DNA from: Candidatus Saccharimonadota bacterium
GTDB taxonomy: Bacteria; Patescibacteriota; Saccharimonadia; Saccharimonadales; Saccharimonadaceae
DNA length: 37,487 nt
NCBI GenBank assembly: GCA_017519305.1
Contig: JAFWSN010000008.1
Location: 1-37,487, forward strand
Direction: 5' to 3'
Under the pieces are notes generated by a model that had not been told where the DNA came from, did not search any database, and saw nothing but the letters and a program-made list of their open reading frames with translations. Shown piece after piece: positions 1,939-17,399 of this stretch (the stretch's first letter is position 1; each line of letters opens with the position of its first letter). The translations under genes were made by a program, and so were the position numbers.

Positions 1939-2535
1939 TTATTCGTACGAATCTATAGGAAAAATACTAGCAATAAATTTATTGTAGACTGGATTATGGG
2001 GGAGACTTGCAACACATATTGCAAGTGGAATTCGCTCTTCCGGAAGCCTATAATGGTTCGGGTCAGTCATCGAAATCTTATTAGCAGTATTATTTCCCAT
2101 TTTAAAATCAACTCTTCGGCGCCCCGCATCGTCTCGGTATATGTATAAATCTGTAGCCAAGAAAATTGTTAATGAATTTTTTGGGTTTCCAACGAAAATA
2201 CTAGACATGCTTCCGAAAAATGAATGGGGCATTTTTCGGAAGATGCTTTTTAGTTGATTGATATTTATGGTATCGACTTTTTCTGGACAATCATATAAGC
2301 AGTTTTCTACATGGTTGCCGAGCGGACACGGGCGCAAGTCAACCTCAATTATGTCGAGTGGCTCAAAAGGGAAATCCTCATCCAATATTGAATTTCCATT
2401 TTCATCAGCGACTAAGCGAACCCATCTGAAAGAGTTGTCGGCACCGCGTATTATACCAGCAACGCATTTCCCATAGTTTATCCCGTCGTCCCGTCGTTTA
2501 TGCGATTTGGTTAGGATTAAAAACTTTGTTCTCAT
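1939..2535 (-). CDS. Probable dual OB-fold protein, third gene of a DUF488 trio
   Basis: The 198-residue protein starts MRTKFLILTKSHKRRDDG. It has an N-terminal half of short beta strands (GKCVAGIIRG, RWVRLVAD, FEPLDIIEVDL), a Cys cluster (C70, C79, C83) and a C-terminal half ending PLAICVASLPHNPVYNKF. From memory this resembles the dual-OB-containing proteins found beside DUF488 genes; I cannot confirm it without a profile search. The ATG at 2533-2535 overlaps the TGA of the upstream DUF488 gene (ATGA), with GGTGAT ahead of it. A longer open frame to 2604 would overlap that gene heavily and is not favoured. OB folds suggest nucleic-acid or nucleotide binding. Confidence 0.55.
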   Translation of the reverse strand: MRTKFLILTKSHKRRDDGINYGKCVAGIIRGADNSFRWVRLVADENGNSILDEDFPFEPLDIIEVDLRPCPLGNHVENCLYDCPEKVDTININQLKSIFRKMPHSFFGSMSSIFVGNPKNSLTIFLATDLYIYRDDAGRRRVDFKMGNNTANKISMTDPNHYRLPEERIPLAICVASLPHNPVYNKFIASIFPIDSYE

Positions 2536-2978
2536 ATATGAATCACCTTGATGTCGTTCGGAAATTCTTTTTCTAATTTTTCTGCCAACAGTCTTCGATG
2601 GCAATGTTCCGGCGTTGCTTCGCTACACAGAATGCACACACTCTCGTAATTTTCAAAATCCCTTAAGAAATCTTTATATGTTCCTCGGTTTTCCTGAATA
2701 GCCAAATATTGTTTCTCGTATTGCTCCCAACTTATTTTTTTGTCTCGCCAATCTTTTAGAAGCTCTTTTGTTGGTGCAAAATCTGGCCTATAAATATAGC
2801 TTATGTTTCCAATTTCCTTAAGGAAATATTTTAAATCGTCAGCTTTTGTAAAACCCGCTAATTGTGACGTATTGTTAATTCTAGTGTCAATTAAAGCGCC
2901 GACAGAACGTGCTTTAAGTGCTCCGAAGAATTCTGCTGCACTTTTTTGAGTAAAGCCAATTGTGTAAAGAATTATCAT
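2532..2978 (-). CDS. DUF488 protein (short form)
   Basis: The 148-residue protein carries the DUF488 hallmarks: LYTIGFTQK at the N-terminus, ALIDTR at 28-33 (the family's DxR), and CSEATPEHCHR at 118-128, where the C-S-E and CHR residues form the conserved putative active site. The reaction catalysed by DUF488 is not established. The start overlaps the stop of the longer DUF488 gene (2975-2978), and the stop overlaps the start of the likely dual-OB gene, so all three are probably made together in fixed ratio. It is only distantly similar to its upstream paralogue. Confidence 0.85.
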   Translation of the reverse strand: MIILYTIGFTQKSAAEFFGALKARSVGALIDTRINNTSQLAGFTKADDLKYFLKEIGNISYIYRPDFAPTKELLKDWRDKKISWEQYEKQYLAIQENRGTYKDFLRDFENYESVCILCSEATPEHCHRRLLAEKLEKEFPNDIKVIHI

Positions 2979-3682
2979 TTATATCCTAATACTTCCTCTC
3001 GAGTCCATCCTATCCTCGAGTTAATTATGCGATAATAATTATTAATATCTTTTAAATACTGACTTGGATCATCAGTAAAAAATGATGGCGATTTTGCGGC
3101 GATTATTTTTTCTTTCATCTCTTGTTCGAGACTATTTAGCTTTTTCTTATGCTCCAGTTCGTTGGTTATTGTTTCGACCATGCGTTTTTCCAAGTCAGCC
3201 TGAGATTCATCTTTTGTATCTGGAACTATATGTTCGATAGCGAAACCATAATCGTTGAATAATACCCGAGCCACCATGATAGCTCGGTGACAGTTCATCG
3301 GGTCTTTTTCGGAGCACATGATAACCGGCGAAAAGCCCTTATCTACTATAGCAATCATATTATTGACACCGTTTTTGAACTGTGTAGATCTAGCAAAGAT
3401 GTCGTAATCAATTCTCATATTTTGTCCGTCAAATTTAGAATAAAAAACGTTATTTTTCTGTTTGGCTCCAAAATATTCTGCGTAATTTCTATATTGTACG
3501 CCATGCCTTAACAATATTTTTTCAAACCACTCTTTGTTGTAGCCATTAAATTGTGCAGAATACGGGTTGCTCCTGACGTCTATCAAAACATCTATCCCCC
3601 GTTTTTTTAACTCAGAAATTAATAGTTCCGGGTTGTTCCCGTAGCCAGAATAGCCAATAGTGTAGATTAGGCGCGTCGACAT
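2975..3682 (-). CDS. DUF488 protein (long form)
   Basis: The 235-residue protein has IYTIGYSGYGNN at the N-terminus, VLIDVRSNPYS at 32-42, and CSEKDPMNCHR at 123-133, all diagnostic of DUF488. Beyond the domain is a charged helical tail (about 165-235) containing ELEHKKKLNSLEQEMKEKI, likely coiled coil, which the short paralogue lacks and which may bind a partner. A TATATA box at 3689-3694 (minus strand) sits 6 nt before the ATG, so the trio may also have its own leaderless promoter in addition to read-through from mrr and the zinc-ribbon gene 24 nt upstream. Confidence 0.85.
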   Translation of the reverse strand: MSTRLIYTIGYSGYGNNPELLISELKKRGIDVLIDVRSNPYSAQFNGYNKEWFEKILLRHGVQYRNYAEYFGAKQKNNVFYSKFDGQNMRIDYDIFARSTQFKNGVNNMIAIVDKGFSPVIMCSEKDPMNCHRAIMVARVLFNDYGFAIEHIVPDTKDESQADLEKRMVETITNELEHKKKLNSLEQEMKEKIIAAKSPSFFTDDPSQYLKDINNYYRIINSRIGWTREEVLGYK

Positions 3683-3705
3683 CTTAGTTATATATAATCA
3701 TATTT

Positions 3706-3966
3706 TCATTTTTTCTTCCAACGTTTCAAAGTAGGGAACACCTTTGAGCAGTATTCTTTCATTTGTTCGTTGGTCATACCGGCTTGCTCACCGAACTGTG
3801 AACATTTTTCGATATATTCCTCCATCGAACAGTCGTCAAGAAATTCACCTTTGTCGTAGCACCATTTGCAATAATCTTCGTTGATGCTGCCGTCTTTGTT
3901 GGTGCCAAGCAAATCTTCCGACGTAAGTGGCATTGCACAACTTTGACAAATTTTAGTGTTTTCCAT
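3706..3966 (-). CDS. Small putative zinc-ribbon protein
   Basis: The 86-residue protein begins MENTKICQSCAMPL and holds CxxC at 7-10 and CKWC at about 33-36, the four-cysteine zinc-binding pattern of the 'putative zinc ribbon' family (Pfam Zn_ribbon_2). The rest is helical and ends KRWKKK. Its molecular role is unknown. GGAGGTTAAAC directly precedes the ATG, an unusually strong Shine-Dalgarno site. It lies 20 nt after mrr and 23 nt before the DUF488 genes, so it belongs to the same transcript. Confidence 0.8.
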   Translation of the reverse strand: MENTKICQSCAMPLTSEDLLGTNKDGSINEDYCKWCYDKGEFLDDCSMEEYIEKCSQFGEQAGMTNEQMKEYCSKVFPTLKRWKKK

Positions 3967-3986
3967 GTTTAACCTCCTTGATTAAA

Positions 3987-4910
3987 TTACGCCAAAATTT
4001 CATTTTCTTCGCTTTTGTAGAAATCATTAAGCTCGTAGGTTTGAACCGGCTCAAGGAATAATTCGTATTTAATAATAAGCCTGACCAGTTCATCGCCATC
4101 AATTAAAGTAATAGGCGAGCCTTCGACGGCAGCCCTTCTTGCGGATACGGTAAATCTGCTATTTGTAATGAAGATTCCGTAATCAGCTTGGTTTTTATTC
4201 ATAGCGCCAAGGAAACGATCAATCTCTGGTGAAGAAACATCGCCAGTGTTGTATCGCTTACACTGGATCACTACGCGCGTAGTTCTAAAATCATTAGAAT
4301 CGCGATGATAACCGAAACCATCAATCCCGCCGTCATTACTGATACTGATGCCTTTTTCCGTAAAGTCAACGCCCATTTCCTTTAACAAAGCACGAGAAAA
4401 TGCTTCGAACTTGCCTGGCGACATTTTAGCTATCGAGTCCAAGAGCTTTGCTTTAAGATTTTCGTTATAAATTTCTTGCGCAGAAGATTTTTCAAGTTTA
4501 GTCGTGTCACCAGCTTCTTCTTGCTGCTTTTTAGCTTGGTATTCCTCGTGTTTATCTTTCCAGTATTGTTCACTGACACTATAGACATCTTTTTCTACAT
4601 CAAAATTCGTAAGATTTAGATTGATGCCTTTTTCGGTAAGTGCAATTTTGCCATTGTTCTCGATGAGGCCAGCAATAATTAAATTCTTGATAGCAAAGTT
4701 GAATTTGAAGAGAAATGGGTGATATGAATTCTGGGTCTGTTTGCTGATCCGTTCACATTTCATGAATTTCGCAATGCCGTCATCGCGGTCAGATAGAGCT
4801 TCTTTAATTTCGGCACGAGACATAGCGCGACTGTATTCCTTGAGAATCTCAAAGATTTTTTCGACTAAATATTTTTCTTGTTGTTGTGCAGACATCTCGG
4901 ATATGTCCAT
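3987..4910 (-). CDS. mrr: Mrr-type restriction endonuclease
   Basis: The 307-residue protein has two domains. Residues 1-105 form a winged-helix N-terminal domain (Mrr_N), followed by a charged helical linker to about 150. Residues 155-285 are the Mrr catalytic domain of the PD-(D/E)xK superfamily, with GGIDGFG (D197), VVIQCKRY (Q216-C-K218) and the later GIFITNSRFT. Such enzymes usually cut modified DNA (type IV restriction), but Mrr-like proteins can also serve other DNA-processing roles. It sits downstream of hsdR, after its own TATAAT (about 4970, minus strand), giving an untranslated leader of roughly 50-60 nt. Confidence 0.9.
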   Translation of the reverse strand: MDISEMSAQQQEKYLVEKIFEILKEYSRAMSRAEIKEALSDRDDGIAKFMKCERISKQTQNSYHPFLFKFNFAIKNLIIAGLIENNGKIALTEKGINLNLTNFDVEKDVYSVSEQYWKDKHEEYQAKKQQEEAGDTTKLEKSSAQEIYNENLKAKLLDSIAKMSPGKFEAFSRALLKEMGVDFTEKGISISNDGGIDGFGYHRDSNDFRTTRVVIQCKRYNTGDVSSPEIDRFLGAMNKNQADYGIFITNSRFTVSARRAAVEGSPITLIDGDELVRLIIKYELFLEPVQTYELNDFYKSEENEILA

Positions 4911-4970
4911 AAATCACTCCATTTCTGCGGCCAACAAAACAACAATTGGTCGCGTTATTACTAGAATATT

Positions 4971-5040
4971 ATAACATCGCCGACCCTTCTTTTGTCGCGA
5001 CTCTACAAATTTGTGCTGCGTCATTCGTTAGCGATGTTAT
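4971..5040. repeat. 10-bp inverted repeat spanning the hsdR-mrr junction
   Basis: ATAACATCGC (4971-4980) recurs as the exact reverse complement GCGATGTTAT (5031-5040). One arm overlaps the mrr -10 region and the other lies in the last hsdR codons. The 50-nt gap makes a simple terminator unlikely. Confidence 0.4.
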
Positions 5041-8000
5041 TGCATTTTAGCTCAGCCTGCTTGATCACGGTTGAAACAGCCTTTTCGCTTTTGTTGGGCG
5101 GGTAATTATATTTAATGAGTAGACGTTTAATTTGCATTCGCATGTGAGCCTGTGAACTGCGTTTAATATCCCAGTCCACAGTCATATTGCTGTTAACCAC
5201 CTCAACAAGCTCTTTGGCGATTTGAACTAATGTTTCATCTTTCATCAATTCTTTCACCTCCGGATCATCACCGAGTGCGTCAAAGAATGCAACTTCTTCC
5301 GGAGATAAATCATAATTGCTCTTACGGATAAGTTCTTTGTCAATATCCTGCTTTAGTTCAATCATTTGCTGGATGATTTTTTCAATATCAGTCACTAACG
5401 TGCGGTTGTTGTAAATATCAACAATCTTTTTGAATCTTTCCGAGAACTTCTGTGACATTACGTAGTTCGCGCGAGCAACTTCTTCGATGTATTGCTTGAG
5501 AGCTTTCTTCAAAATTTCTGCCGCAATATTTTTGTTTTCCATAGCGGCCAGGCGCTGCAAAATCTGGTTACTTAAAAGATTAAGCTCGTGGCCATGCAAA
5601 ATTTTTCCAACCTGAATAAGTTCATCGTCCTGAATTGCTTGTTGTAACATTTCTGCTACATCGCGGTTAATATCGGAAACGTCTAGCTTGCCATTGACCA
5701 GGGTTAACTTATTAATAAATGAGCGCACGGAGATGATAAACATTGACTCCCATCTGTCGTCGAATGTAATTGAGCCGGTAGAAATCGAGTAGAGATTCTT
5801 TACGTCGCGCGCGTGGTGCATGAATTTATTTTTCGTGTCTTCGTCTTGCAAAATGAAGTTTGCGGCCTTATTTAGTAACTGGTATTTCCCAATATTATCC
5901 AACGAGTTGTAATTTGAATAGTCTAAACCATGCAATAAATTTCTTATAAGTTCGATTTTATCGCGGAGAACTTTTACGACCTGCTCGGAATCTACGATCT
6001 TACCTTGGTCGCGTTTCGTATAGGTACTAAGCGCTTCAAGAAGCCATTTCTTAAGTCCGATATAGTCTACGATAAGACCGCCGGTTTTGTCTTTGTAAAC
6101 GCGGTTAGTGCGCGCGATAGCTTGCATTAAGTTATGCGCTTTCATTGGTTTATCGACATACATCGTGCCTAGACATGGAACATCAAAACCAGTCAGCCAC
6201 ATATCAACTACGATCACAATCTTAAACTCGGAGTTAGGATCCTTAAATAATCTCTCGCGTTCATGCTTGTCGCTCTTGCTACCAATTGCAAGCGCCATTT
6301 CTTCGGAGTCCTTATTGCTTGGTGTCATGACCATATAGACTTTGCCTTTAAGTTCTGGTCTTAACTCAAGAATCTTTTTATACATCGTAAATCCGCTATT
6401 GCGAGAGTAGGCAACAATCATAGCTTTGTTTGCAACAAGATCTTTGCGGCTTTCGTAATGATTTAAGATGTCTTTTACGATCATTTCTAGGCGGTCTGGA
6501 TCTTCGATAACTTGCGAAATGTGCGTCATCATTTGTTTTGAGCGAGCGATCTTTTCTTCGTCCGCTAAGCCTTCGTTTTCGATCGTGTCATAGTAAGCGT
6601 CGATTTCTTGAAGGATTTTATCGTTCAGGCCAACCTTTGCCATGCGCGCTTCATAAGTAATTGGAACTGTAGCGCCATCGTCGATAGCCTGCGTCATATC
6701 GTAGACATCGATAATGTCTCCAAAGACGTTAGACGTCGAATGGTCTTTGTTTTCAATTGGCGTTCCAGTAAAGCCAACATATTTCGCGTTTGGAAGGGCA
6801 TCATGGAGATACTTTGCGGTACCATATTTCTCAACCGCAATCATTTTCTCCATATCGAGTTTCGTCGTAGCATCGATGCCGTAGTGGCTACGGTGTGCCT
6901 CATCGGCGATAACAATGATATCGTCGCGCTCTGATAGCAGGCCGGTTTCTTCTTCGAACTTCTGAAGGGTAGTAAAGATGATGCCGCCTACTTGTTTATT
7001 CTCGAGGCGTTCGATTAAGTCTTTTCTGCTTTCAACATGTTCTGGTTTCTGGCGGAGATATTCCGAACATTTAGCAAATGTTTCATACAACTGATCGTCT
7101 AAATCGTTGCGGTCCGTTACTACTACGATGGTCGGGTTATTTAGGCGCTTAATCATGTTGGCAGCATAGAATACCATCGAAAAACTCTTGCCAGAGCCTT
7201 GTGTATGCCAGAACACCCCAATACGGCCGTCGCCGGTCGTTAGAGTGCGTTCTACGGCCTTTTTAACGCCATAATACTGATGGTATGCCGGCAGGATTTT
7301 AGTGTCTTCCTGGTAAAGTATGAAATTGCCGATCAGATCAAGCAGAGTTTCGCGCTTTAGTAGGCCATGGATCATTGGCTCTAGCGTATTTAGATTTTCT
7401 GGAGTGTCATTAATGCCGGTCTTCTTCCAGTCCGAGAAACGCTCCCATTTACATGTAATTGTGCCAGCCCTTGCCGTTACACCATCGGAAGCGATAAGAA
7501 TTTGGTTATAATAGAATAGGCTCGGAATATGGATTTTCTTGTAGTTGTTGAGCTGATTGTATGCGGCTTCTGGCGTCGTGTCTTCTTCGTCACGCGTCGC
7601 GCTTTTAAGCTCGATCACGACGAGCGGCATACCGTTGATAAAGATGATGATGTCTGGGCGCTTTTCGCTATGCTCAATGATCGTATATTGGTTTACGACT
7701 AGGAATTCATTATTGTCAATATTATCGTAGTCGATTAATCTTACGGTCTTATAATCTACGCCATGGTTAGTATATTCGGGAACTTTTACGCCTTCATGAA
7801 GCATGCGACTGAATTCCTGATTATTGCGGATGAGATTATTCTGGTCTAGGTTCTTGATTTTGCGAATTGCTTCAGAAATAGTGCTTTCTTGTAGATTTGG
7901 ATTAAGTCTAGAAAGAGAGTTTTCTAAATGAGAAAGAAGAAGCACGTCGTGATAATCGCGTTCAATTTCTTCGCCTGGTTGGTAATCGTAACCTTGACTT

Positions 8001-8050
8001 TGCAAGGTTTCGATAATCATTTTTTCTAATGCTTCTTCGTTGAAATTCAT
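5021..8050 (-). CDS. hsdR: Type I restriction enzyme, R subunit (HsdR)
   Basis: The 1009-residue protein is full length for HsdR, the DNA translocase and nuclease of a type I system. The N-terminal nuclease core has D133 (RPDIIIF) and the E-L-K signature at 147-149 (VVIELKSA). The SF2 motor follows, with HTQGSGKS at 282-289 (motif I), VTDRNDLDDQ (Ia) and IADEAH at 381-386 (motif II); GFTGTPIE and the ARTNRVYKDK region are motifs III and VI. The C-terminal third is helical and docks on HsdM/HsdS in known complexes. ATG 8048-8050 is preceded by ATGGAG. The gene starts 14 nt after the unrecognised gene. Confidence 0.97.
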   Translation of the reverse strand: MNFNEEALEKMIIETLQSQGYDYQPGEEIERDYHDVLLLSHLENSLSRLNPNLQESTISEAIRKIKNLDQNNLIRNNQEFSRMLHEGVKVPEYTNHGVDYKTVRLIDYDNIDNNEFLVVNQYTIIEHSEKRPDIIIFINGMPLVVIELKSATRDEEDTTPEAAYNQLNNYKKIHIPSLFYYNQILIASDGVTARAGTITCKWERFSDWKKTGINDTPENLNTLEPMIHGLLKRETLLDLIGNFILYQEDTKILPAYHQYYGVKKAVERTLTTGDGRIGVFWHTQGSGKSFSMVFYAANMIKRLNNPTIVVVTDRNDLDDQLYETFAKCSEYLRQKPEHVESRKDLIERLENKQVGGIIFTTLQKFEEETGLLSERDDIIVIADEAHRSHYGIDATTKLDMEKMIAVEKYGTAKYLHDALPNAKYVGFTGTPIENKDHSTSNVFGDIIDVYDMTQAIDDGATVPITYEARMAKVGLNDKILQEIDAYYDTIENEGLADEEKIARSKQMMTHISQVIEDPDRLEMIVKDILNHYESRKDLVANKAMIVAYSRNSGFTMYKKILELRPELKGKVYMVMTPSNKDSEEMALAIGSKSDKHERERLFKDPNSEFKIVIVVDMWLTGFDVPCLGTMYVDKPMKAHNLMQAIARTNRVYKDKTGGLIVDYIGLKKWLLEALSTYTKRDQGKIVDSEQVVKVLRDKIELIRNLLHGLDYSNYNSLDNIGKYQLLNKAANFILQDEDTKNKFMHHARDVKNLYSISTGSITFDDRWESMFIISVRSFINKLTLVNGKLDVSDINRDVAEMLQQAIQDDELIQVGKILHGHELNLLSNQILQRLAAMENKNIAAEILKKALKQYIEEVARANYVMSQKFSERFKKIVDIYNNRTLVTDIEKIIQQMIELKQDIDKELIRKSNYDLSPEEVAFFDALGDDPEVKELMKDETLVQIAKELVEVVNSNMTVDWDIKRSSQAHMRMQIKRLLIKYNYPPNKSEKAVSTVIKQAELKCNNIANE

Positions 8051-8064
8051 TTTTTACTCCATTT

Positions 8065-8859
8065 TTATAATTCACTACTTCTCATTTTGTTTAAATCATA
8101 ATTAATGGTTGATGGTCTAGGCTTATGTAGGTCGTAAACTGTAAGCTGTGGAAGAGGAAAGAATCCTTGAGAGGTTTTAAGCAATTTATATGGAGTCAGC
8201 CAAAGAAGATAGTCTATGCCTTTATCATAAAAACACTTTAATAATTCTTCATCAATAAAGAAGAGATGCGGCCTTCCGGGGACCGATTGCTCTACGATTG
8301 AAGTGTCGTCCGTTTGATTCTTTGTCTCAAAATATGCCGTAGATTCATCGAATACGACAAATATTATTTCGTAGCCTGGATGGTTCTGTTTATATGAAGA
8401 AATACTATCGATGTGTTCACTTATGACACGTTTATAGTTGTTTGAATATAAGGCAAAATTATGGTCTTCTTCTGTAGGTAATCCAGTATTCCCGATTATG
8501 GTTACCTTTGCATTAGGTGCGGCTGCAAGAAGCCCGCTTCGTTCTATCTCGTTATATATATCACGTTCATGTTTCATTGATGGATTATAAAGCTTTCCTC
8601 GTCTATTGGATCTTTCTGTATCGTTTACGCGCATAATATCCATCATTAGTTTGAAGCTATCGCAGTAAAAATCCGGAGGATTATTGGTATTTTTTGAATT
8701 ATCCACCCATTTTGCCCAGTTTTTCTTAGCTTTAATTTTGTTTAATACGGAAACCGCTTTCTCTGATTCTATGGGAAAACAAATCTCTGCATCATTTAAA
8801 ATTTGCAGCTGTTCAATTATATCTATTTCATTGTCCGCAAACATTCTGCCTTTACTCAT
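8065..8859 (-). CDS. Uncharacterised protein encoded between hsdS and hsdR
   Basis: I do not recognise this 264-residue soluble protein; it has no signal peptide or membrane segment. The N-terminal 50 residues are helical, then comes PPDFYCDSFKLMMDIMRVND (an acidic patch seen in some nuclease-like folds), RGKLYNPSMKHERD, a beta strand KVTIIGNTG, and EIIFVVFDESTAYFE, a hydrophobic strand ending in D-E-S. The tail ends DLHKPRPSTINYDLNKM. ATG 8857-8859 is chosen because AAAGGTG (8866-8872) is then a well-spaced ribosome-binding site; the GTG nine bases upstream is part of that site. Its position inside the M-S-X-R operon implies an accessory role in the restriction system. Confidence 0.8.
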   Translation of the reverse strand: MSKGRMFADNEIDIIEQLQILNDAEICFPIESEKAVSVLNKIKAKKNWAKWVDNSKNTNNPPDFYCDSFKLMMDIMRVNDTERSNRRGKLYNPSMKHERDIYNEIERSGLLAAAPNAKVTIIGNTGLPTEEDHNFALYSNNYKRVISEHIDSISSYKQNHPGYEIIFVVFDESTAYFETKNQTDDTSIVEQSVPGRPHLFFIDEELLKCFYDKGIDYLLWLTPYKLLKTSQGFFPLPQLTVYDLHKPRPSTINYDLNKMRSSEL

Positions 8860-8872
8860 ATCGTTCACCTTT

Positions 8873-10021
8873 CTAGATATTTATCTCTCCAGACATAAGT
8901 TTTGGGAGAAGAGCATCGCGCAAATGTAAGAGGGATTGCCTTTGAGAATTATTACAGATTATTTTTTCTAGCAGTGGCCTGAATGTCTCATCTTGTTTCT
9001 TTAATTCGTGTTCACTCGGAATTAGCACTTTCGAAAGGCTAAGTTCTTTTCTTTGGATATGGCCCATAGTAGTTGCCTTGCCCTTTGCTATATTTATAAA
9101 TCGCTCAAGATGTTTTTTTGTCCAAAAATAATAAAACCATTTTGGATATTCATCTGACGTCACTTTAAAGATATGTTGGTTGAGGCCTGCAACTTCACCG
9201 TCCCATATTTTTATGCACAAAGTACCAGACCAGGCAAACAAAACATCTCCCGGAAATACCGTATATTCTTCCTTTAATTCACTTGTACATCTCTCTGTAT
9301 CCTTCGATATGCCAGAGTTCATTTCCTTAATTTTTACAACTGGTAATCCTAAATCATTGTCTCCTGGACGGAATTTTTGCATAGCTAACCCGTTCGTATA
9401 TTTTGCAATTTCATCCAAGCCAACCGTAGCAATTGGCTTCATATTATCTATCCAGTTGTTAAAATGGCTTTGAAGTGTATTCTCAATTGTACAATTCTCG
9501 CAATTAATTAACTCGATTTTTTGGTCGAGAGCGGAGAGGATGCGGACGATTCTTTTCTGAGTTTCTAAATCATAAACAGGAATCATCAATTCTCTGATTG
9601 TTGCCATTGGAACTGTTGGTTGAGTGCTACCATGTGCATAATTAACCATCTGTAGTCTAAATTCATGACTTTTCATACACTGAAATAAAAATTCAGGGTC
9701 AATAGCATTTCGATTTGGGGTTATTTTAGCCACGTTCGGCGCAAGATGGTACTTTCCTTCCTCTAATATTTGTGCTATTTCGCCAATAGTTCCTGTATAT
9801 GAGAGAACGATGTCATACTTATGGAGCTTGCTTCTGGGCAGTATTTCTGATGATTCTTTAGAAATACGCTTTACGTCATTAAGTACGAGCCGCCCGTCTT
9901 TTAAATTTAACGCACGGATAGCTATTATTTCTCCATTATTGGTATATTTTATATGTTTAGTGAACTCAAATCCGGCTAATTTCGTTACATTGGCCACCTC
10001 ACCGAGCTTTTTATATTCCAT
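8873..10021 (-). CDS. hsdS: Type I restriction-modification specificity subunit (HsdS)
   Basis: The 382-residue protein has the two-half architecture of HsdS. The first target-recognition domain starts EYKKLGEVANVTKLAG and the first spacer helix holds LSALDQKIELINCEN (about 160-180). The second recognition domain (about 195-345, with FPGDVLFAWSGTL) is followed by a second helix ending LRDALLPKLMSGEI, the usual HsdS C-terminus. It sets the DNA sequence bound by the methylase and restriction complexes. ATG 10019-10021 overlaps hsdM by 11 nt and has AGGTG at good spacing; the GTG at 10033 lies within that site. There is only one hsdS and no sign of inverted partial copies. Confidence 0.93.
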   Translation of the reverse strand: MEYKKLGEVANVTKLAGFEFTKHIKYTNNGEIIAIRALNLKDGRLVLNDVKRISKESSEILPRSKLHKYDIVLSYTGTIGEIAQILEEGKYHLAPNVAKITPNRNAIDPEFLFQCMKSHEFRLQMVNYAHGSTQPTVPMATIRELMIPVYDLETQKRIVRILSALDQKIELINCENCTIENTLQSHFNNWIDNMKPIATVGLDEIAKYTNGLAMQKFRPGDNDLGLPVVKIKEMNSGISKDTERCTSELKEEYTVFPGDVLFAWSGTLCIKIWDGEVAGLNQHIFKVTSDEYPKWFYYFWTKKHLERFINIAKGKATTMGHIQRKELSLSKVLIPSEHELKKQDETFRPLLEKIICNNSQRQSLLHLRDALLPKLMSGEINI

Positions 10022-11507
10022 ACCCAATCTCACCTAAAACTTTTTTAATTTCAGTGTCTAACTCGGCAGATTTTTTCATTTGTTCAGAAAGCTCGGAAGT
10101 TAAGCGTTTCATTTTTTCTTCAAATGGCTCACCATCATCTTCGGCTTCTTTTATTCCGACATATCGTCCTGGAGTTAAAACACAATCATTTGCCTTAATA
10201 TCATCAAGCGAAGCTTTCTTGCAGAAGCCAGCTACATCATCATAATTATCGTCATTTGCGTAGGCATGATAAGTATTCGCGATCTTCATAATGTCATCTT
10301 CGGAAAGTTCGCGAAGCTTACGCGTAACCATAGTGCCCATATCGTTTGCATTAATAAAGAGAGTGTGGCCTTTTTGCTTCTTGTTACGATTTAGAATCCA
10401 AATTGAGCAAGGAACTGTTACGGTATAGAAGAGATTGGTTGGCATGGAAAGAATACAGTCTACGAGGTCGGCTTCGATGAGTTTCTTGCGGATTTCGGCT
10501 TCTTGGCCGCCAGCGGAAAGAGAACCGTTTGCTAGAATGATAGCTGCTTTACCATTTTGAGATAATTTAGACACCATGTGTTCTATCCAGGCATAATTGG
10601 CATTACCTTTTGGTGGAGTGCCGTATTTCCAGCGATAGTCATTGAGGAGTTTTTCTTGACCCCAGTCCGAAAGGTTGAATGGTGGATTGGCCATCACGAA
10701 ATCGGCTTTAAGGTCTTTATGTAAGTCTTCAGTAAAAGTATCAGCGGCAAACTTGCCGAGATTTCCATCGATAGAACGAATCGCAAGGTTCATTTTTGCG
10801 AGCTTCCAGGTGGTAGGATTCTTTTCCTGACCATAAATGGAAAGGTTATGAACGTTACCTTGGTGGCGTTGAATAAACTTTAAGGATTGGACGAACATGC
10901 CGCCAGAACCACAGGCCGGGTCGTAAACGCGACCCTCATATGGCTCGATTATTTCAACCATAGTGCGTACAAGACAGGCAGGAGTATAGAACTCGCCGCC
11001 TTTCTGTAGTTCGTTTGCGGCAAACTCACCAAGGAAGTATTCGTAAATGCGGCCAAGTAGGTCTTTTTCTTCGGCTTCTTTGGTGCCAACCTTAATGTTT
11101 GTGAATAGGTCGATAATCTCACCTAGGTTAACGTTGCGGTTGTCTGGATCGTTATAAACTTTGAATAGTACGCCTTTGAGCGTCGGGTTTTCTTTTTCGA
11201 TAGAATCGAGCGCTTTATCTAGGATCTCTCCAATATTGTAATCTTTGGCATGATCCACGAGATATTGCCAACGTGCGTTTTCTGGTACGAAGAATACGTT
11301 TTCCTCAGCATAAGCGTCACGGTCTTCTTCAAGACCTAGGCCTTCCTCTTTGAGGGCGTTATAGCGTTCATTAAAAGAATCGGAGATATATTTCAGGAAT
11401 ATTAAGCCTAGAATTAGGAATTTGTAATTGGTTACTGAAACGCCGCCGCGCATTTTATCGGCAGCTGCCCAGAGAGTCTTTTCTAGGTCTTTAATATTGC
11501 TATTCAC
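10011..11507 (-). CDS. hsdM: Type I restriction-modification DNA methyltransferase (HsdM)
   Basis: The 498-residue N6-adenine methylase is full length. Residues 1-135 form the HsdM N-terminal helical domain (LWAAADKMRGG). The SAM-binding motif DPACGSGGMF is at 196-205 and the catalytic NPPF at 274-277. It modifies the sequence chosen by HsdS so that HsdR does not cut host DNA. The start is GTG 11505-11507 with GGAGAAAA 11 nt upstream. It is the first gene of the hsdM-hsdS-X-hsdR operon and is divergent from the helicase gene across 190 nt. Confidence 0.96.
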   Translation of the reverse strand: MNSNIKDLEKTLWAAADKMRGGVSVTNYKFLILGLIFLKYISDSFNERYNALKEEGLGLEEDRDAYAEENVFFVPENARWQYLVDHAKDYNIGEILDKALDSIEKENPTLKGVLFKVYNDPDNRNVNLGEIIDLFTNIKVGTKEAEEKDLLGRIYEYFLGEFAANELQKGGEFYTPACLVRTMVEIIEPYEGRVYDPACGSGGMFVQSLKFIQRHQGNVHNLSIYGQEKNPTTWKLAKMNLAIRSIDGNLGKFAADTFTEDLHKDLKADFVMANPPFNLSDWGQEKLLNDYRWKYGTPPKGNANYAWIEHMVSKLSQNGKAAIILANGSLSAGGQEAEIRKKLIEADLVDCILSMPTNLFYTVTVPCSIWILNRNKKQKGHTLFINANDMGTMVTRKLRELSEDDIMKIANTYHAYANDDNYDDVAGFCKKASLDDIKANDCVLTPGRYVGIKEAEDDGEPFEEKMKRLTSELSEQMKKSAELDTEIKKVLGEIGYGI

Positions 11508-11550
11508 AATCGAGTTTTCTCCGCAATTAATTAGTAAAATTCTTACCTAT

Positions 11551-11559
11551 ATTATATCA
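11551..11559 (-). promoter_or_regulatory. hsdM operon promoter, extended -10
   Basis: On the minus strand TGATATAAT covers 11559-11551, a TGn-TATAAT extended -10 box with no clear -35 box. It implies a leader of about 35-40 nt that contains the GGAG site. Confidence 0.55.
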
Positions 11560-11607
11560 TGAAAACACCTCGAAACGGCCGCCAGGTATTCGATCTATCT
11601 GAGGGAT

Positions 11608-11634
11608 CACACAATCGTGCCAGAGCTTTGTGTG
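11608..11634. promoter_or_regulatory. Inverted repeat between divergent defence promoters, possible operator
   Basis: CACACAA (11608-11614) and TTGTGTG (11628-11634) are exact reverse complements 13 nt apart, midway between the hsdM and helicase promoters. A regulator site is possible; no regulator gene is adjacent. Confidence 0.35.
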
Positions 11635-11682
11635 CAGATATCGTTAAAACTTATGCTATATTTTGGCGTATAAAGTTTGTGG

Positions 11683-11688
11683 TATAAT
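11683..11688 (+). promoter_or_regulatory. -10 box of the helicase-nuclease gene (leaderless)
   Basis: TATAAT ends 9 nt before ATG 11698, so transcription should begin within about three bases of the start codon. No Shine-Dalgarno sequence is present. Confidence 0.6.
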
Positions 11689-11697
11689 TATTGCATA

Positions 11698-14600
11698 ATG
11701 TCAAGTAGCACAAACATCTCAATTAAAGACTTGGCGGCTTATTGTTTAGACTATTCTAAACTGGTCGCCGGCAATGCGAATCTTTCTAGGGGGCCTCGCG
11801 CCGAACTGGATAAAAATCTTATAGACGCCCATAATCTCATTTCTGAAATTCCCAACCAAGATGGTGAAATATTCTTTAATTTTGAATTAATAACAGGCGT
11901 AGAACATGACGTAAATATGCCTGAAAAATCAAAAACACAAGAACAGCTGGAAGCGGAAAAACGTCTACAAAAAGATAAAGAAATACTGGCTACTCTTACG
12001 GATATTAACAACAAAATAAAGACTCAAGAATATACCAAAAAAGTTATACTCGAGACCGGGATAATAAAATTTACAGCTAAGCGTGTGGATAACGGATTTT
12101 TTGGGCGAACCAAAGTTGTTGGTTCGGATGCTCCAGAAGACATCAAAACAGCACTTATCCAGGTGCCAGTAATGATCGACTTACATCCGCAAAAAAATTC
12201 TGTTGCGGTAAAAGTGACGATAACCGATCCGTATTTAAAATTCGCCATAGAGCCACTCAACAGCTTCTTAAAACAATCATACTATGATGATGTTTTTGAA
12301 CTAGTTACTAAGTTTGACGCAGAAGATAAAAACGCGATACCGGTCAGCGACACAACCCTAGAAGATGTATGGATGAAAATCAGATCGTATCTACATCTTA
12401 TGGATGCAGAAAATGTTTCTGAGACCCCGGACTTTTCTTATTGCACGATTAAACTTTCTACAAAAACGAACTATTTTCTGGCAGAGGATTTAAATATTCT
12501 TGCAAATAAAGACGATGATGAAATGGAAGAAACTTCTCTGGGGGCTTGGTCATCCGACGAAGACATGAACAATGAATACAGCGTGCACGACGATGGTCGA
12601 ACCGAAATATTTTTCCCGTTTCAGTACGACAAATATCAGCTAAAAACGTTGGGGATTATTGACAACAAAGCTTCGATTATAGAAGGGCCTCCTGGAACCG
12701 GCAAATCGCAAACCATTGCAAATATCTTGTGTCACTTGGCCGCAACTGGCAAAAAAGTCCTTTTTGTAAGCCAGAAAGACCAAGCGGTCAGAGGAGTAAA
12801 AGATAAACTTAAAACCTTAGACATACCATTTCTTTTTGGTTATATCCCAGACAGAACATCACGCCTATACACGGAAGATGACGAGCGCGATAGCGCCGTA
12901 AATATGTTAAAAAGTTTTCAGAAAACATATTTCAAGGTAGCAAGCAGCGATCAGAAAGCCCCGTTACGCATTATTCATGAAAAAGAAAATGCATATAATG
13001 ACGGGATTGAAAATGAGCGCAGCCTATTTGACTACTATAACCAGAGAAGGGCCCTCGATTATGTAAAAAACTATGCCACTTTGGGAATTAATCGCGAATG
13101 GTGGATTAAATACAATCAAGCATGGGAACAGACAAATCAGCTCAAAGATGCCGCGAATGAATATAAGAAGAATAACGCCGCTCTTATAAAAAAAGAATCT
13201 ACGGAATTAAAAGACACCGACGTCAATTATGTAGCCATAAGCGAATTTTTGTCGCAGATTCTAAAAGATTTTAATGAAATCGTTCCCGAAAGGGCCGGGT
13301 CATTCAGAACTATGTTTATCCGGAACAAGATGAACAATTCTCTAAAGAGACACGGGAAAGCAATTATTCAGGAAGTTTACCGTCAGGTTGAAGATATTAT
13401 TTTTTCTGACAATACAAAAACTGCACGACTAAGAGAGCTGCAATCGCTAAAAGATTATTTTGAAAACTGTATAACAATAAATAAAATCGCTTCATTGGAA
13501 AACGAAATGTTAGACTTGCTTGCTAGCGCCAGCATGAATCAGGAACAAGCCGACAATCTTCAATCTATTATCTCCGAAAAAGGAGAAGAGGCGGTATTTT
13601 CCGACATAAATGAATATACTGAATTAACTGAAGAGATTGACAGTATTGAACATTTTTCCGCCAATGAACTTAATCAAGAAATCAAAGAGCTTCAGAAATA
13701 TTGCAAAGGGAACGTTTGCAATTATATTCGTAATCGTATCTTGAAGCACATTGATGCTGTGAATTCTCAAAAAAGCACAAATGCGATATTGCACCGCATT
13801 GCTAATAGCCTTTCAAAAGGGAGGAAAGCATACAAAACGTTTGACAAGCTCAAGAATGGTGAAGATGGGCCAGACAATTTTAAGGTCATGTCCGAGACTG
13901 TACCGATTTGGATGATGAATTTAGAGGATGTCAATCGTATTATTCCGATGATCGCGAATGTCTTTGATTATGTTATCCTGGATGAAGCTTCTCAATGCAA
14001 CTTAGCATACTCGCTGCCGGTCATGTATCGTGCGAAACACACTGTATTCTTTGGGGATAGTCTACAGATGAGAGACACAAACACATTGTTTAAGTCAAAC
14101 CAGCAGCTTGAGGCTATTGCCAAAAAACACAAAATATCAGACTATTATCAGATTAAGGCTACCGAAGATTCTGTGAAATCCGTAATGGATATAGCAATTC
14201 TTGCCGGTTTTAAAACCGCCATATTACGTTATCACTATCGTTCGCCAAAGGAACTTATCGGATTTTCAAATACGAATTTTTATGAAGCCGTAGGACGCTC
14301 GTTGGAAGTTGTAAATGACAACATATTGACTTACAAAAATACAAACAGGGTATTAATTAATCACGTGATCGACGCACCGGATGAAAATGAAGATTCCGGA
14401 AAATGCAACTACGCTGAAGCCGAATACATTAAAGGATTAGTTGAAGAACTAAAAAGCGACCCAAGGACAAAAGATAAATCTATCGCCGTATTAACTTTCT
14501 TCAATGAGCAGGCCGAACTATTGCGTCAGTCTATCGAAGACGACGACGTTAAAGTTTCTATTATAGAAGGCATCCAGGGCGACGAAAGAGACATAGTGAT

Positions 14601-15714
14601 TTATTCTTTCGTCATAAGAGATCCTAGCGAAAAAAATCGCTATACCGCTTTAACTGGCGAAGGCGGGAATATCCGTAAAGGAGCGGCCGAGGGACGAGTA
14701 AACGTAGCATTCAGCCGCGCTAGGCTTCAAGTGCACTGTGTGACTTCATTAAAGCCAGAACTGTGGCCGGAGGGCATTTGGATAAAAAAATATCTTGAGT
14801 ATGTTGACGAGAATGGCATGCCTCAATCTCGTAATTCGACGGAAGGTCAGAGATTTGAATCCGAGTTCGAAAAAGAAGTATTTACAGCTATAGCCGAAGT
14901 ACTGGACAATCGCAGCTATTCAATGGATACGCAGGTCAAGTCTTGTGGGTTCCGCATAGATTTGGTTGTTGGCAACAAAAAAACTGGACGAAAACTCGCT
15001 ATTGAATGTGATGGCCCAAGCCACTTTGAGAATGGTGATGGTCAAGTATACGTCAAGAGCGACTGGGAGAGACAAATGGTCTTGGAGACGGCCGGATGGC
15101 ATTTTTATCGTATTTCATATTTTGATTGGATGGAAGAAAAAGAAAAAACACTGAAAGACGCACTAGAATACATTCAAAATTATCTCGACGACGGCAAAGA
15201 AAAACTATTTTCAGCTGCTGAATCAGTCAAGGCATTAAAGGCGGAAGAGGCTCTCCCGGAAGCGACCAAGAAAACTGACTACGTAACTAATTTTTCAGAC
15301 GACCCAGTTTTTCGAAAAGACGGAGACTCAAGTGATGCCGATGTGCAAAAAATTTTGAGAGAAGCTTTCACTCGTCCTACAGTCACTAATACCGTGAGCA
15401 AAACCAGCACAACTACAGCCTTGCCAAAACAACAATTTACCGTCGGTGATAGGGAGGTAAACCAGATTGAATTTGAAAAATATTTAAAGAAACATGTGGG
15501 GGGCACCATTACTATACGATATCAATCGACAAGAAAAAATAGCGCTCGGAGATGGAGGGACATAGACATGGAAAAATATGACTCTACTTACATATGGACG
15601 CGTCACGAAGACGGGTACCCTATCAGATATAGGCGTGACAGGGTTGTTGAATATAAAGATAATTCAAACCCAGACAAAACCTATGACGAAGACGAGGCCG
15701 ATTATGAAATATGA
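11698..15714 (+). CDS. SF1 helicase with C-terminal Vsr/DUF559-like nuclease and WYL-like domain (Hhe-like defence protein)
   Basis: The 1338-residue protein opens with a region of unknown fold (1-300). Next is a UPF1-type SF1 helicase: GPPGTGKS at 330-337, LDEAS at about 761-765, and VAFSRAR at about 1003-1009 (motif VI), with a long helical insertion between the first two motifs. Residues 1050-1165 form a PD-(D/E)xK nuclease of the Vsr/DUF559 type: RIDLVV (D1088), ECDGPSHF (E1103, D1105) and WHFYRIS. A WYL-like tail contains ITIRYQS and GYPIRYRRDRVVEY (about 1268-1320). The overall design resembles the single-protein helicase-Vsr defence type called Hhe, but I see no clear DUF4011 at the N-terminus. 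A defence role is inference. Confidence 0.85.
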   Translation: MSSSTNISIKDLAAYCLDYSKLVAGNANLSRGPRAELDKNLIDAHNLISEIPNQDGEIFFNFELITGVEHDVNMPEKSKTQEQLEAEKRLQKDKEILATLTDINNKIKTQEYTKKVILETGIIKFTAKRVDNGFFGRTKVVGSDAPEDIKTALIQVPVMIDLHPQKNSVAVKVTITDPYLKFAIEPLNSFLKQSYYDDVFELVTKFDAEDKNAIPVSDTTLEDVWMKIRSYLHLMDAENVSETPDFSYCTIKLSTKTNYFLAEDLNILANKDDDEMEETSLGAWSSDEDMNNEYSVHDDGRTEIFFPFQYDKYQLKTLGIIDNKASIIEGPPGTGKSQTIANILCHLAATGKKVLFVSQKDQAVRGVKDKLKTLDIPFLFGYIPDRTSRLYTEDDERDSAVNMLKSFQKTYFKVASSDQKAPLRIIHEKENAYNDGIENERSLFDYYNQRRALDYVKNYATLGINREWWIKYNQAWEQTNQLKDAANEYKKNNAALIKKESTELKDTDVNYVAISEFLSQILKDFNEIVPERAGSFRTMFIRNKMNNSLKRHGKAIIQEVYRQVEDIIFSDNTKTARLRELQSLKDYFENCITINKIASLENEMLDLLASASMNQEQADNLQSIISEKGEEAVFSDINEYTELTEEIDSIEHFSANELNQEIKELQKYCKGNVCNYIRNRILKHIDAVNSQKSTNAILHRIANSLSKGRKAYKTFDKLKNGEDGPDNFKVMSETVPIWMMNLEDVNRIIPMIANVFDYVILDEASQCNLAYSLPVMYRAKHTVFFGDSLQMRDTNTLFKSNQQLEAIAKKHKISDYYQIKATEDSVKSVMDIAILAGFKTAILRYHYRSPKELIGFSNTNFYEAVGRSLEVVNDNILTYKNTNRVLINHVIDAPDENEDSGKCNYAEAEYIKGLVEELKSDPRTKDKSIAVLTFFNEQAELLRQSIEDDDVKVSIIEGIQGDERDIVIYSFVIRDPSEKNRYTALTGEGGNIRKGAAEGRVNVAFSRARLQVHCVTSLKPELWPEGIWIKKYLEYVDENGMPQSRNSTEGQRFESEFEKEVFTAIAEVLDNRSYSMDTQVKSCGFRIDLVVGNKKTGRKLAIECDGPSHFENGDGQVYVKSDWERQMVLETAGWHFYRISYFDWMEEKEKTLKDALEYIQNYLDDGKEKLFSAAESVKALKAEEALPEATKKTDYVTNFSDDPVFRKDGDSSDADVQKILREAFTRPTVTNTVSKTSTTTALPKQQFTVGDREVNQIEFEKYLKKHVGGTITIRYQSTRKNSARRWRDIDMEKYDSTYIWTRHEDGYPIRYRRDRVVEYKDNSNPDKTYDEDEADYEI

Positions 15715-16726
15715 AACAATCATGAAAAAAATCACCGACGGTCTCACCGGTGACCCTCAAAAAGACATTCCGTATTTAATGGAACAGACCAAAAAATACA
15801 AAGATCACGAAATGGGAACAGAAATCTTGCGCGCTTGCGGACGATTAATGAGTCAGTGTGTGCCAGAAGATACAAAGGAAGAGGTTACTAAGATAATTCA
15901 AGAAAAAATAGACTTCTTTAACGATACACTGCACGAAGCTCGCGTTGCGCAGCGTGAACAAAAATTTGATGAGGCACTCACCGCAATAGAAAAAGCAGTA
16001 CACGAAATAGAAGAATTGGGTTTTTATAAGGATGATCGTGTCAGTGAATATCGTTGTTTTAATGAATTCTTTGAGGAAGTACTGTACAGAGAATACGAAA
16101 AACCTACAAAAACTTTGCGCTATCCAGATTTTCCAACTGATCAAATATATTTACAATATGGTAGCTCGTTAATTGATGCCGGTCGTCCAAAAGATGCCGA
16201 GGCTGCCCTCACTACTGCCATGCGTTGGAATCCGGCATCGGTAGACATTGCAATTGAACGCGCCGAAGCCTGTAAGCTTCAAGGCAAACTTGAAGATTTT
16301 TTCAAAATTACATTAGACAGTTTCAAATATGCATTTCGTCCAAAACAAGTAGCTAGATGTTTCCGTAACCTCGGATTTTACTTTGCAGAAAAAACAATGT
16401 GGAGGGAATCCGCGGCCTGTCTCAAATTGAGCATACAATTTGACAGGGAATCGGAAATGGCTTTTTCTGAGATACTTTATATTGAGACGACAGCAGGAAA
16501 AGATGTTAATCTGTTGCTTAGTCCAGAAGAAATTCAAGAAATTGCTAAAAAGTATAACTTCCCATTTGGTGCGCACAAAGACGTGCTCGGGTTATCGTAT
16601 ACCTATGGAGAATATTTTGCGGACAAAGGCGACGCGGATCTAGCAGAATATTGTTGGCAAATCACCTACGGCTTGACCGGCGATGAAAACATCAAAAAAT
16701 TGATTGATAATTTGCCGAAACATTAA
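15704..16726 (+). CDS. TPR-like protein coupled to the helicase-nuclease
   Basis: The 340-residue soluble protein is made of helical hairpins with TPR spacing, for example FDEALTAIEKAVHEIEELG, IYLQYGSSLIDAGRPKDAEA, AALTTAMRWNPASVDIAIER and YGEYFADKGDADLAEYCW. Such repeats usually bind other proteins. ATG 15704-15706 overlaps the helicase gene by 11 nt and has GAGG at 15694-15697. An open frame reaches back to 15578 but lies inside the helicase gene and has no better start. The tight coupling suggests it is a partner or regulator of the helicase-nuclease. No catalytic motif is visible. Confidence 0.8.
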   Translation: MKYETIMKKITDGLTGDPQKDIPYLMEQTKKYKDHEMGTEILRACGRLMSQCVPEDTKEEVTKIIQEKIDFFNDTLHEARVAQREQKFDEALTAIEKAVHEIEELGFYKDDRVSEYRCFNEFFEEVLYREYEKPTKTLRYPDFPTDQIYLQYGSSLIDAGRPKDAEAALTTAMRWNPASVDIAIERAEACKLQGKLEDFFKITLDSFKYAFRPKQVARCFRNLGFYFAEKTMWRESAACLKLSIQFDRESEMAFSEILYIETTAGKDVNLLLSPEEIQEIAKKYNFPFGAHKDVLGLSYTYGEYFADKGDADLAEYCWQITYGLTGDENIKKLIDNLPKH

Positions 16727-16730
16727 AAAC

Positions 16731-16756
16731 CCCGCACCATGCGGCGCGGGATTTTT
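16731..16756 (+). terminator. Terminator after the helicase/TPR operon
   Basis: CCCGC (16731-16735) can pair with GCGGG (16746-16750), or CCGC with GCGG at 16741-16744, followed by five Ts. A-run upstream makes it possible in both directions, which suits the convergent gene at 16773. Confidence 0.7.
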
Positions 16757-16772
16757 AAGGTGAGGCGCTAAA

Positions 16773-17399
16773 CTAAAAATTGTTATTAAACCACAGTTGA
16801 TACTTGTAATCATATCTTTTGGCGAGCCAGCAGCAATAATCAAACGACAGTAGAAATTCTTTTCGGCAAAGCGGATGCAAATCTTGGATTTGCAGTTTCT
16901 CCACGTAGGCTTTTTCGTCGTCCGAATATTGGCTAAAAGTCAGCCGATTGGCACGGTCCGGATTTTGCTCCAGCGACTTTTGGATCTTGTCCGCGCACTT
17001 TAGGCAGTCGATCTCCTCGTCGAGATTAAAAGCGTACGATATCAACGTAAAATAAAACACAATTACCATCATCAAATAAGCTACGATAAAGAAACAGTGC
17101 ATATATTCTGGTTGATGAGATAACCAACGATTCGTTACTAAAGGCGCGATACAAATCGGCAATGCCAAGAAATAAAATTTTTTCATTAAACTTAGCGATT
17201 CTTGTTTTTCTCGTTTGATTAAATGCTCCTCGTCAAACACGATGAGCGCGCCCGAGAAAGAAAAGCCCAAACTAAGTACCGTCAAAAGCTTCGTCACTAC
17301 GTTGCCGGCCAGCCAAAGCACCAACAGCCCAAACGGTATTGCCAGGATTATTGCCGCCACGATGATGCTATAAAAAATTACACTTTTCCGTTCTTCCAT
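16773..17399 (-). CDS. Membrane protein of unknown function
   Basis: I do not recognise this 208-residue protein. It has about four membrane helices: residues 7-30 (VIFYSIIVAAIILAIPFGLL), 35-55, 72-92 and 100-122. A cytoplasmic C-terminal region of about 85 residues follows, with a CLKC pair (about 133-136), the acidic QYSDDEKAYVEKLQI stretch and several aromatic residues. CLKC could be redox-active or metal-binding, but two cysteines alone are weak evidence. GGGAGG precedes ATG 17397-17399 by 7 nt, and a TATAAT box lies at 17437-17442 (minus strand). It forms a single-gene unit divergent from the glycan cluster. Confidence 0.75.
   Translation of the reverse strand: MEERKSVIFYSIIVAAIILAIPFGLLVLWLAGNVVTKLLTVLSLGFSFSGALIVFDEEHLIKREKQESLSLMKKFYFLALPICIAPLVTNRWLSHQPEYMHCFFIVAYLMMVIVFYFTLISYAFNLDEEIDCLKCADKIQKSLEQNPDRANRLTFSQYSDDEKAYVEKLQIQDLHPLCRKEFLLSFDYCCWLAKRYDYKYQLWFNNNF

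What the first reader, a model, noticed from the sequence alone, without database searches (positions are those of the whole stretch)
1939..3682. Two DUF488 paralogues and a probable dual-OB gene in a fully overlapped trio inside the defence island
Three genes overlap as ATGA twice (2975-2978, 2532-2535), implying a fixed-ratio complex. Both DUF488 proteins keep the C-S-E and CHR residues and the DxR, so both should be active, but they differ in length by 87 residues; the long one has an extra coiled-coil tail. DUF488 has no assigned reaction, and the third protein looks like an OB-fold nucleic-acid or nucleotide binder. They lie downstream of Mrr and the type I system. I infer a nucleotide- or nucleic-acid-targeting defence or modification module.
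Basis: partly seen in the sequence, partly recalled or inferred. Interest (0 to 1): 0.72.

Follow-up and report, generated by a model that had tools for sequence, protein, structure and literature searches.

The report
Imported DuOB–DUF488 operon, candidate defence PDC-M45
Three overlapping genes in a very small bacterial genome encode a probable DNA-binding protein and two sister enzymes of unknown chemistry; the same three-gene set, found across bacteria and archaea, is already listed as an untested candidate antiviral system, and relatives that are fused to DNA helicases or sit beside DNA-repair genes suggest that it works on DNA.

Summary
Window 1939-3682 (minus strand) encodes a long DUF488 protein, a short DUF488 protein and a tandem-OB protein (Pfam DuOB), joined by two ATGA overlaps. 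The trio matches PADLOC candidate PDC-M45 (subunits B, C, A), so it is a divergent member of a listed but untested defence candidate. Of the 80 nearest genomic relatives of the short gene, 68 carry all three genes together, mostly in this same B-C-A order, in many phyla including archaea. Natural A-B and B-C fusions and correlated evolution support one working unit. In this phylum the trio is nearly unique (1 of 380 genomes), AT-rich, and lies in a variable island with Mrr, type I restriction and a helicase-nuclease gene.

Mechanism remains inferred. The DuOB model resembles DNA-binding tandem-OB proteins (HIN-200, RPA, POT1). Relatives are fused or adjacent to PIF1 or RecQ helicases. The DUF488 proteins keep a Cys loop that weakly resembles the rhodanese active site. 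I favour a cysteine-dependent DNA-processing complex, probably used in defence; DNA-adduct repair is the main rival, because lone short-DUF488 genes sit beside uvrA or uvrB in formaldehyde-related operons. Linkage to restriction genes is not conserved among relatives, so the defence role is unproven.

The parts
2975..3682 (-). Long DUF488 protein, 235 aa (PDC-M45B-like); first gene of the trio; D35-x-R37, C123-x-E125, C131-H132-R133; conserved C-terminal tail about 150-217
   Evidence: PADLOC PDC-M45B 1.6e-34; Pfam DUF488 4e-18; 14 invariant columns in 61 sequences
2532..2978 (-). Short DUF488 protein, 148 aa (PDC-M45C-like, Pfam DUF488-N3a); D31-x-R33, C118-x-E120, C126-H127-R128
   Evidence: PADLOC PDC-M45C 1.1e-51; Pfam DUF488 3e-21, DUF488-N3a 5.7e-14; AlphaFold2 model pLDDT 95
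1939..2535 (-). DuOB protein, 198 aa (PDC-M45A-like): tandem OB domain, invariant C24, G27, R40, E77; predicted DNA binder
   Evidence: Pfam DuOB 2.1e-15; PADLOC PDC-M45A 5.8e-8; AlphaFold2 model pLDDT 90 whose best fold matches are HIN-200, RPA and POT1
2975..2978 (-). ATGA overlap between long and short DUF488 genes (possible translational coupling)
   Evidence: sequence; ATGA at the B-C junction is possible in 25 of 76 relative junctions
2532..2535 (-). ATGA overlap between short DUF488 and DuOB genes
   Evidence: sequence; ATGA at the C-A junction is possible in 5 of 61 relative junctions
3706..3966 (-). Zn_ribbon_2 protein, 86 aa, 23 bp upstream of the trio and on the same strand; common near LiaF in the genus, so probably not part of the system
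   Evidence: Pfam 5.9e-29; homologues beside LiaF/TfoX in trio-less congeners
3987..11507 (-). Mrr-type nuclease, HsdR, unknown 267-aa protein, HsdS, HsdM: restriction neighbours on the same strand (context, not part of the trio)
1939..17399 (.). Variable island: in the nearest congener the interval from LiaF to the wzy-like gene is 2 kb with unrelated ASCH-like genes
   Evidence: tblastn and blastn against G063 and other congeners

Best explanation
The trio is a horizontally acquired, divergent PDC-M45 operon. Its products most likely form one complex: the tandem-OB protein holds DNA, probably single-stranded or distorted, and the paired DUF488 subunits, which keep a conserved loop (Cys, then Cys-His-Arg eight residues on) plus an Asp-x-Arg, carry out a cysteine-dependent reaction on that DNA or on nucleotides derived from it. 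In this genome it most likely serves defence against incoming DNA. Shown here: family identity, conservation of the unit, natural fusions, tandem-OB predicted fold, retention of the Cys-loop residues in both enzymes, and patchy horizontal distribution. Inferred: complex formation, DNA as target, cysteine catalysis and the defence role.
For: Each protein matches its own PDC-M45 subunit model. Trio complete in 68 of 80 relatives, 56 of them in this B-C-A order. Subunit distances correlate, Mantel r 0.59-0.71 against null maxima of 0.19 or less. Natural fusions: DuOB-DUF488 (L068), long-short DUF488 (L122), DuOB-PIF1 helicase (L015, L032, L040, L044, L052) and DuOB-RecQ (L078); separate RecQ gene upstream of the trio in L024. 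Fold of the DuOB model: HIN-200 with dsDNA (4jbm, E 2.3e-4), RPA, POT1, telomere-end protein; SSB and PriB. DUF488 long profile against rhodanese: score 33.0, against 17.8 and 18.5 for two other alpha/beta families and at most 19.2 in 60 column shuffles, with the two Cys loops aligned. Patchy: 1 of 380 genomes of the phylum; GC 37.6% against 42.5% mean. Trio or DuOB-DUF488 pair beside type III CRISPR genes, CBASS or a NotI restriction system.
Against: No restriction genes of the window's type near 80 relatives; neighbours are mixed and mostly ordinary metabolic or regulatory genes; the PADLOC neighbour tally (188 families in 143 proteins) against random regions (89 in 130) is suggestive only, because one protein can match many families. 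The rhodanese link is weak (probability 27-59%), and a profile of the short DUF488 alone does not show it. No solved relative by sequence. Lone short DUF488 genes sit in formaldehyde-related operons next to uvrA or uvrB, which fits repair better than immunity.
Confidence: 0.45

Rival explanations
1. DNA-damage repair module: the complex recognises distorted or cross-linked single-stranded DNA and removes aldehyde or alkyl adducts by cysteine chemistry, working with helicases and nucleotide-excision proteins; its islands reflect mobility, not immunity.
For: Short DUF488 between uvrA and frmR in formaldehyde-related operons and beside uvrB and a formaldehyde-type repressor in Acinetobacter; PIF1 and RecQ fusions or neighbours; HIN-200/RPA/POT1-like fold; nearest related trio lies among housekeeping genes.
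Against: In those operons the short DUF488 is alone, without the long DUF488 or DuOB; trio distribution is patchy and includes CRISPR, CBASS and restriction neighbourhoods and viral contigs.
Confidence: 0.3
2. Nucleotide-level system: the DUF488 enzymes act on free nucleotides, and DuOB is a nucleotide or cyclic-nucleotide sensor that triggers them, as in abortive infection.
For: Short DUF488 pairs with DUF4326/minimal-SLOG proteins on small plasmids; weak Foldseek hits of DUF488 to CTP synthase; type III CRISPR and CBASS neighbours use nucleotide signals.
Against: No nucleotide-binding motif identified; CTP synthase hits are weak (TM about 0.45, rmsd above 7); helicase fusions argue for polymeric DNA.
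Confidence: 0.15
3. Ordinary accessory metabolic or regulatory genes with no role in DNA or defence, carried along in a variable region.
For: DUF488 is common (6 of 14 control genomes); neighbour genes are mixed.
Against: Conserved unit across bacterial phyla and archaea, natural fusions with DNA helicases, correlated evolution.
Confidence: 0.1

Closest known systems
PADLOC candidate system PDC-M45
   Same: All three proteins match their respective subunit models (A DuOB, B long DUF488, C short DUF488), encoded together as in other members.
   Different: The A subunit is divergent (5.8e-8) and gene order is B-C-A, the commonest order among the nearest relatives but not that of the three plasmid trios with A-B-C order; host is an ultra-small genome in whose phylum the trio was otherwise unseen. 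No experimental test of PDC-M45 found in the library.
DuOB-PIF1 and DuOB-RecQ helicase fusions beside DUF488 pairs in Bacteroidota and Fibrobacterota
   Same: Same B-C-A operon with the same DuOB domain.
   Different: The window's DuOB has no helicase domain and no helicase gene adjoins the trio directly; an SF1 helicase-nuclease gene lies 8 kb away on the other strand.
HIN-200, RPA70 and POT1 tandem-OB DNA-binding domains
   Same: Two OB domains in tandem in the predicted structure.
   Different: About 10% identity and rmsd 8 or more over the whole length in Foldseek; resemblance of fold only. DuOB has its own invariant Cys, Arg and Glu.
Rhodanese / Cdc25-type and PTP-type cysteine-loop enzymes
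   Same: D-x-R after strand 2 and Cys at the end of strand 4 followed by a helix; profile alignment matches both motifs.
   Different: Longer Cys loop with a second Cys-His; weak significance; no shared chemistry shown.

Membership tests
PDC-M45 (PADLOC) | DuOB-type subunit A | tested here: met
   PDC-M45A 5.8e-8, 30.7 bits; Pfam DuOB 57.8 bits, cut-off 27. PADLOC's own cut-off is not shown by the tool.
PDC-M45 (PADLOC) | Long DUF488 subunit B | tested here: met
   PDC-M45B 1.6e-34
PDC-M45 (PADLOC) | Short DUF488 subunit C | tested here: met
   PDC-M45C 1.1e-51
PDC-M45 (PADLOC) | Three genes adjacent and co-directional | tested here: met
   1939-3682, two ATGA overlaps
PDC-M45 (PADLOC) | Protects against phage | not testable with these tools
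   Needs plaque assays; no published test found
DUF488-N3a (Pfam PF22751) | Score of the short protein above the family cut-off of 27 bits | tested here: met
   Short protein 52.9 bits
DUF488-N3a (Pfam PF22751) | Same test for the long protein | tested here: not met
   Long protein 14.1 bits; it is DUF488 but not N3a
Rhodanese superfamily | Significant profile match with active-site Cys and D-x-R aligned | tested here: inconclusive
   Score 33.0 (long), 27.6 (merged), 19.8 (short); long and merged above shuffles and two control families but probability 59% or less
Rhodanese superfamily | Sulfur transfer or phosphatase activity through that Cys | not testable with these tools
   Biochemistry needed
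Tandem-OB DNA-binding proteins | Two OB folds in tandem | tested here: met
   AlphaFold2 model pLDDT 90, mainly beta; Foldseek and VIA-align top hits are OB proteins
Tandem-OB DNA-binding proteins | Binds DNA | not testable with these tools
   Binding assay needed

The most novel reading that the evidence does not exclude
DUF488 enzymes are a rhodanese-like family of cysteine enzymes that act directly on DNA, and DuOB plus two DUF488 subunits form a new DNA-processing machine, recruiting or fused to PIF1 and RecQ helicases, that attacks or repairs modified, cross-linked or foreign single-stranded DNA.
Probability: 0.25. Interest if true: 0.8.

Novelty: new member of a known kind. Interest (0 to 1): 0.5.

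Why it matters
DUF488 occurs in many genomes and has no assigned reaction. This work links a listed but untested candidate system to DNA through natural helicase fusions and a DNA-binding-type tandem-OB fold, points to testable cysteines, and offers two separable phenotypes (phage resistance, aldehyde or DNA-damage tolerance). It also shows the system in an ultra-small genome, where keeping such genes is costly.

Tried and rejected
Literature: no paper in the library mentions PDC-M45; of the 25 that mention DUF488, none has a title or abstract about its mechanism (two were opened); two papers guessed as sources of the Pfam names do not contain DUF488; the DuOB text search returned unrelated words. 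Structure by sequence: no credible PDB relative for any of the three; FOXP3 hits of the long tail are coiled-coil similarity. Fold of short DUF488: best Foldseek hits (CTP synthase) and VIA hits (CobF/CbiL Z about 9, PRL phosphatases Z 7.5-8) are near the level the tool calls common arrangements, so no fold family is claimed. An intermediate DuOB profile had grown into helicase regions and was rebuilt from domain envelopes; the counts quoted use the rebuilt one. Defence enrichment: the neighbour tally and random-region control do not give distinct protein counts, so no enrichment is claimed. Phages: DuOB was not found in sequenced phages and the short DUF488 is only weakly matched there, so a standard phage structural or replication role was rejected. 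A uvrA-like hit in L012 by phmmer was not confirmed by a domain scan of the adjacent genes.

Full report
Observation. The three ORFs and both ATGA overlaps are exactly as described. Pfam names two DUF488 proteins and a DuOB (dual OB) protein. PADLOC-DB matches each to a different subunit of one candidate system, PDC-M45: B for the long DUF488 (1.6e-34), C for the short (1.1e-51) and A for DuOB (5.8e-8). The trio is therefore not unheard of: it is a divergent member of a listed candidate. [quoted passage not shown] No paper in the library names PDC-M45.

Conservation of the unit. A scan of one genome per species with the short DUF488 profile found at least 562 relatives; among the best 80, the full trio is present in 68: 56 in order B-C-A, 10 A-B-C, one with a second DuOB, and one in which DuOB and long DUF488 are one protein (the fusion). 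The window's order is thus the commonest among its relatives. A viral-contig locus has the two DUF488 domains in one 377-aa protein. Distance matrices of the three subunits correlate (r 0.65, 0.59, 0.71; null maxima 0.14-0.19). In the concatenated tree the window pairs with L012, an unnamed bacterium (100/100), inside a supported set made mostly of Bacillota. Viral contigs carry 36 close relatives, mostly a two-gene DuOB-short DUF488 form.

Local context. The window's genome is 0.79 Mb in 11 contigs (97% complete). DuOB occurs in no other of 380 genomes drawn from the phylum, and other genomes give only weak DUF488 matches. The trio is AT-rich, 37.6% G+C against a window mean of 42.5%. In the nearest congener, the interval from the LiaF-like gene to the wzy-like gene is 2 kb with unrelated genes, whereas the window has about 15 kb there holding the trio, a zinc-ribbon gene, Mrr, a type I system and an SF1 helicase with a REase domain. 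The trio is thus part of a variable, defence-rich island in this genome.

Is the defence link general? Partly. Trios lie beside type III CRISPR genes in Allochromatium and Rhodothermus plasmids and beside CBASS in Agrobacterium; the DuOB-short DUF488 pair lies beside NotI restriction in Klebsiella. But no HsdR, HsdM, HsdS or Mrr relative was found in 1 Mb around 80 related loci, neighbour families are diverse, the closest trio sits among radical-SAM, response-regulator and aconitase genes, and the PADLOC tally against random regions is not decisive.

DNA as the target. The AlphaFold2 model of DuOB (pLDDT 90) has as best fold matches HIN-200 with dsDNA, RPA, POT1 and telomere-end proteins, and SSB-type proteins in the second look. 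All are weak over full length but consistent in kind. DuOB is fused to PIF1-type helicases in five of the 80 loci and to RecQ in one, always behind the DUF488 pair; a separate RecQ gene adjoins the trio in L024 and a UvrD gene follows the fused one in L040. Lone short DUF488 genes lie between uvrA and frmR in enterobacterial formaldehyde-related operons and next to uvrB in Acinetobacter. These converge on DNA handling but do not separate immunity from repair.

Chemistry. D-x-R, C-x-E and C-H-R are invariant in both paralogues, so both keep whatever site this is. In the short model (pLDDT 95) C118 ends strand 4 and H127 begins the next helix, as in cysteine-loop enzymes. Profile comparison of the long DUF488 with rhodanese gives score 33.0 with the two Cys loops aligned; two unrelated alpha/beta families give 17.8 and 18.5, and 60 column shuffles at most 19.2. 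A merged DUF488 profile aligns over 85 columns including the D-x-R (score 27.6, shuffles at most 15.6). This is a lead, not membership: the probabilities are 27-59%, and the short profile alone does not show it. A metal site made by C, C and H is not excluded.

Verdict. Real, conserved and horizontally mobile; already listed as a candidate; function untested. I favour a cysteine-dependent DNA-processing complex used in defence (0.45), with DNA-adduct repair the main rival (0.3).

Noticed in passing
window 11677-15714 (+): SF1-type helicase with a C-terminal MTES_1575 restriction-nuclease domain (Pfam 2e-20; PADLOC PDC-S37), followed by an overlapping TPR protein at 15578-16726; another defence candidate in the same island.
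   Followed up: partly
window 8065-8868 (-): Unknown 267-aa protein between HsdS and HsdR in the type I restriction operon; no confident Pfam, NCBIfam or PADLOC match.
   Followed up: no
L010, L155, L156 (E. coli plasmids), L008 (Acinetobacter): Lone short DUF488 gene between uvrA and frmR (or beside uvrB) in plasmid operons with formaldehyde-metabolism genes; in E. coli only on plasmids (12 of 5426 genomes).
   Followed up: partly
L157, L158 and L004: Short DUF488 overlapping or next to a DUF4326 (minimal-SLOG-like) gene on small enterobacterial plasmids: another pairing of the short DUF488.
   Followed up: partly
L031, L056, L082, L051: DuOB proteins with C-terminal Gp157-like or DUF1351 extensions; Gp157 is a siphovirus family by name.
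   Followed up: no
window 3706-3966 (-): Zinc-ribbon gene 23 bp upstream of the trio; its homologues in trio-less congeners lie near LiaF and TfoX, so gene order around the insertion has changed.
   Followed up: partly
window 28687-29100 (+): Small protein with a weak nucleoside 2-deoxyribosyltransferase match (4.6e-5, below the Pfam cut-off).
   Followed up: no
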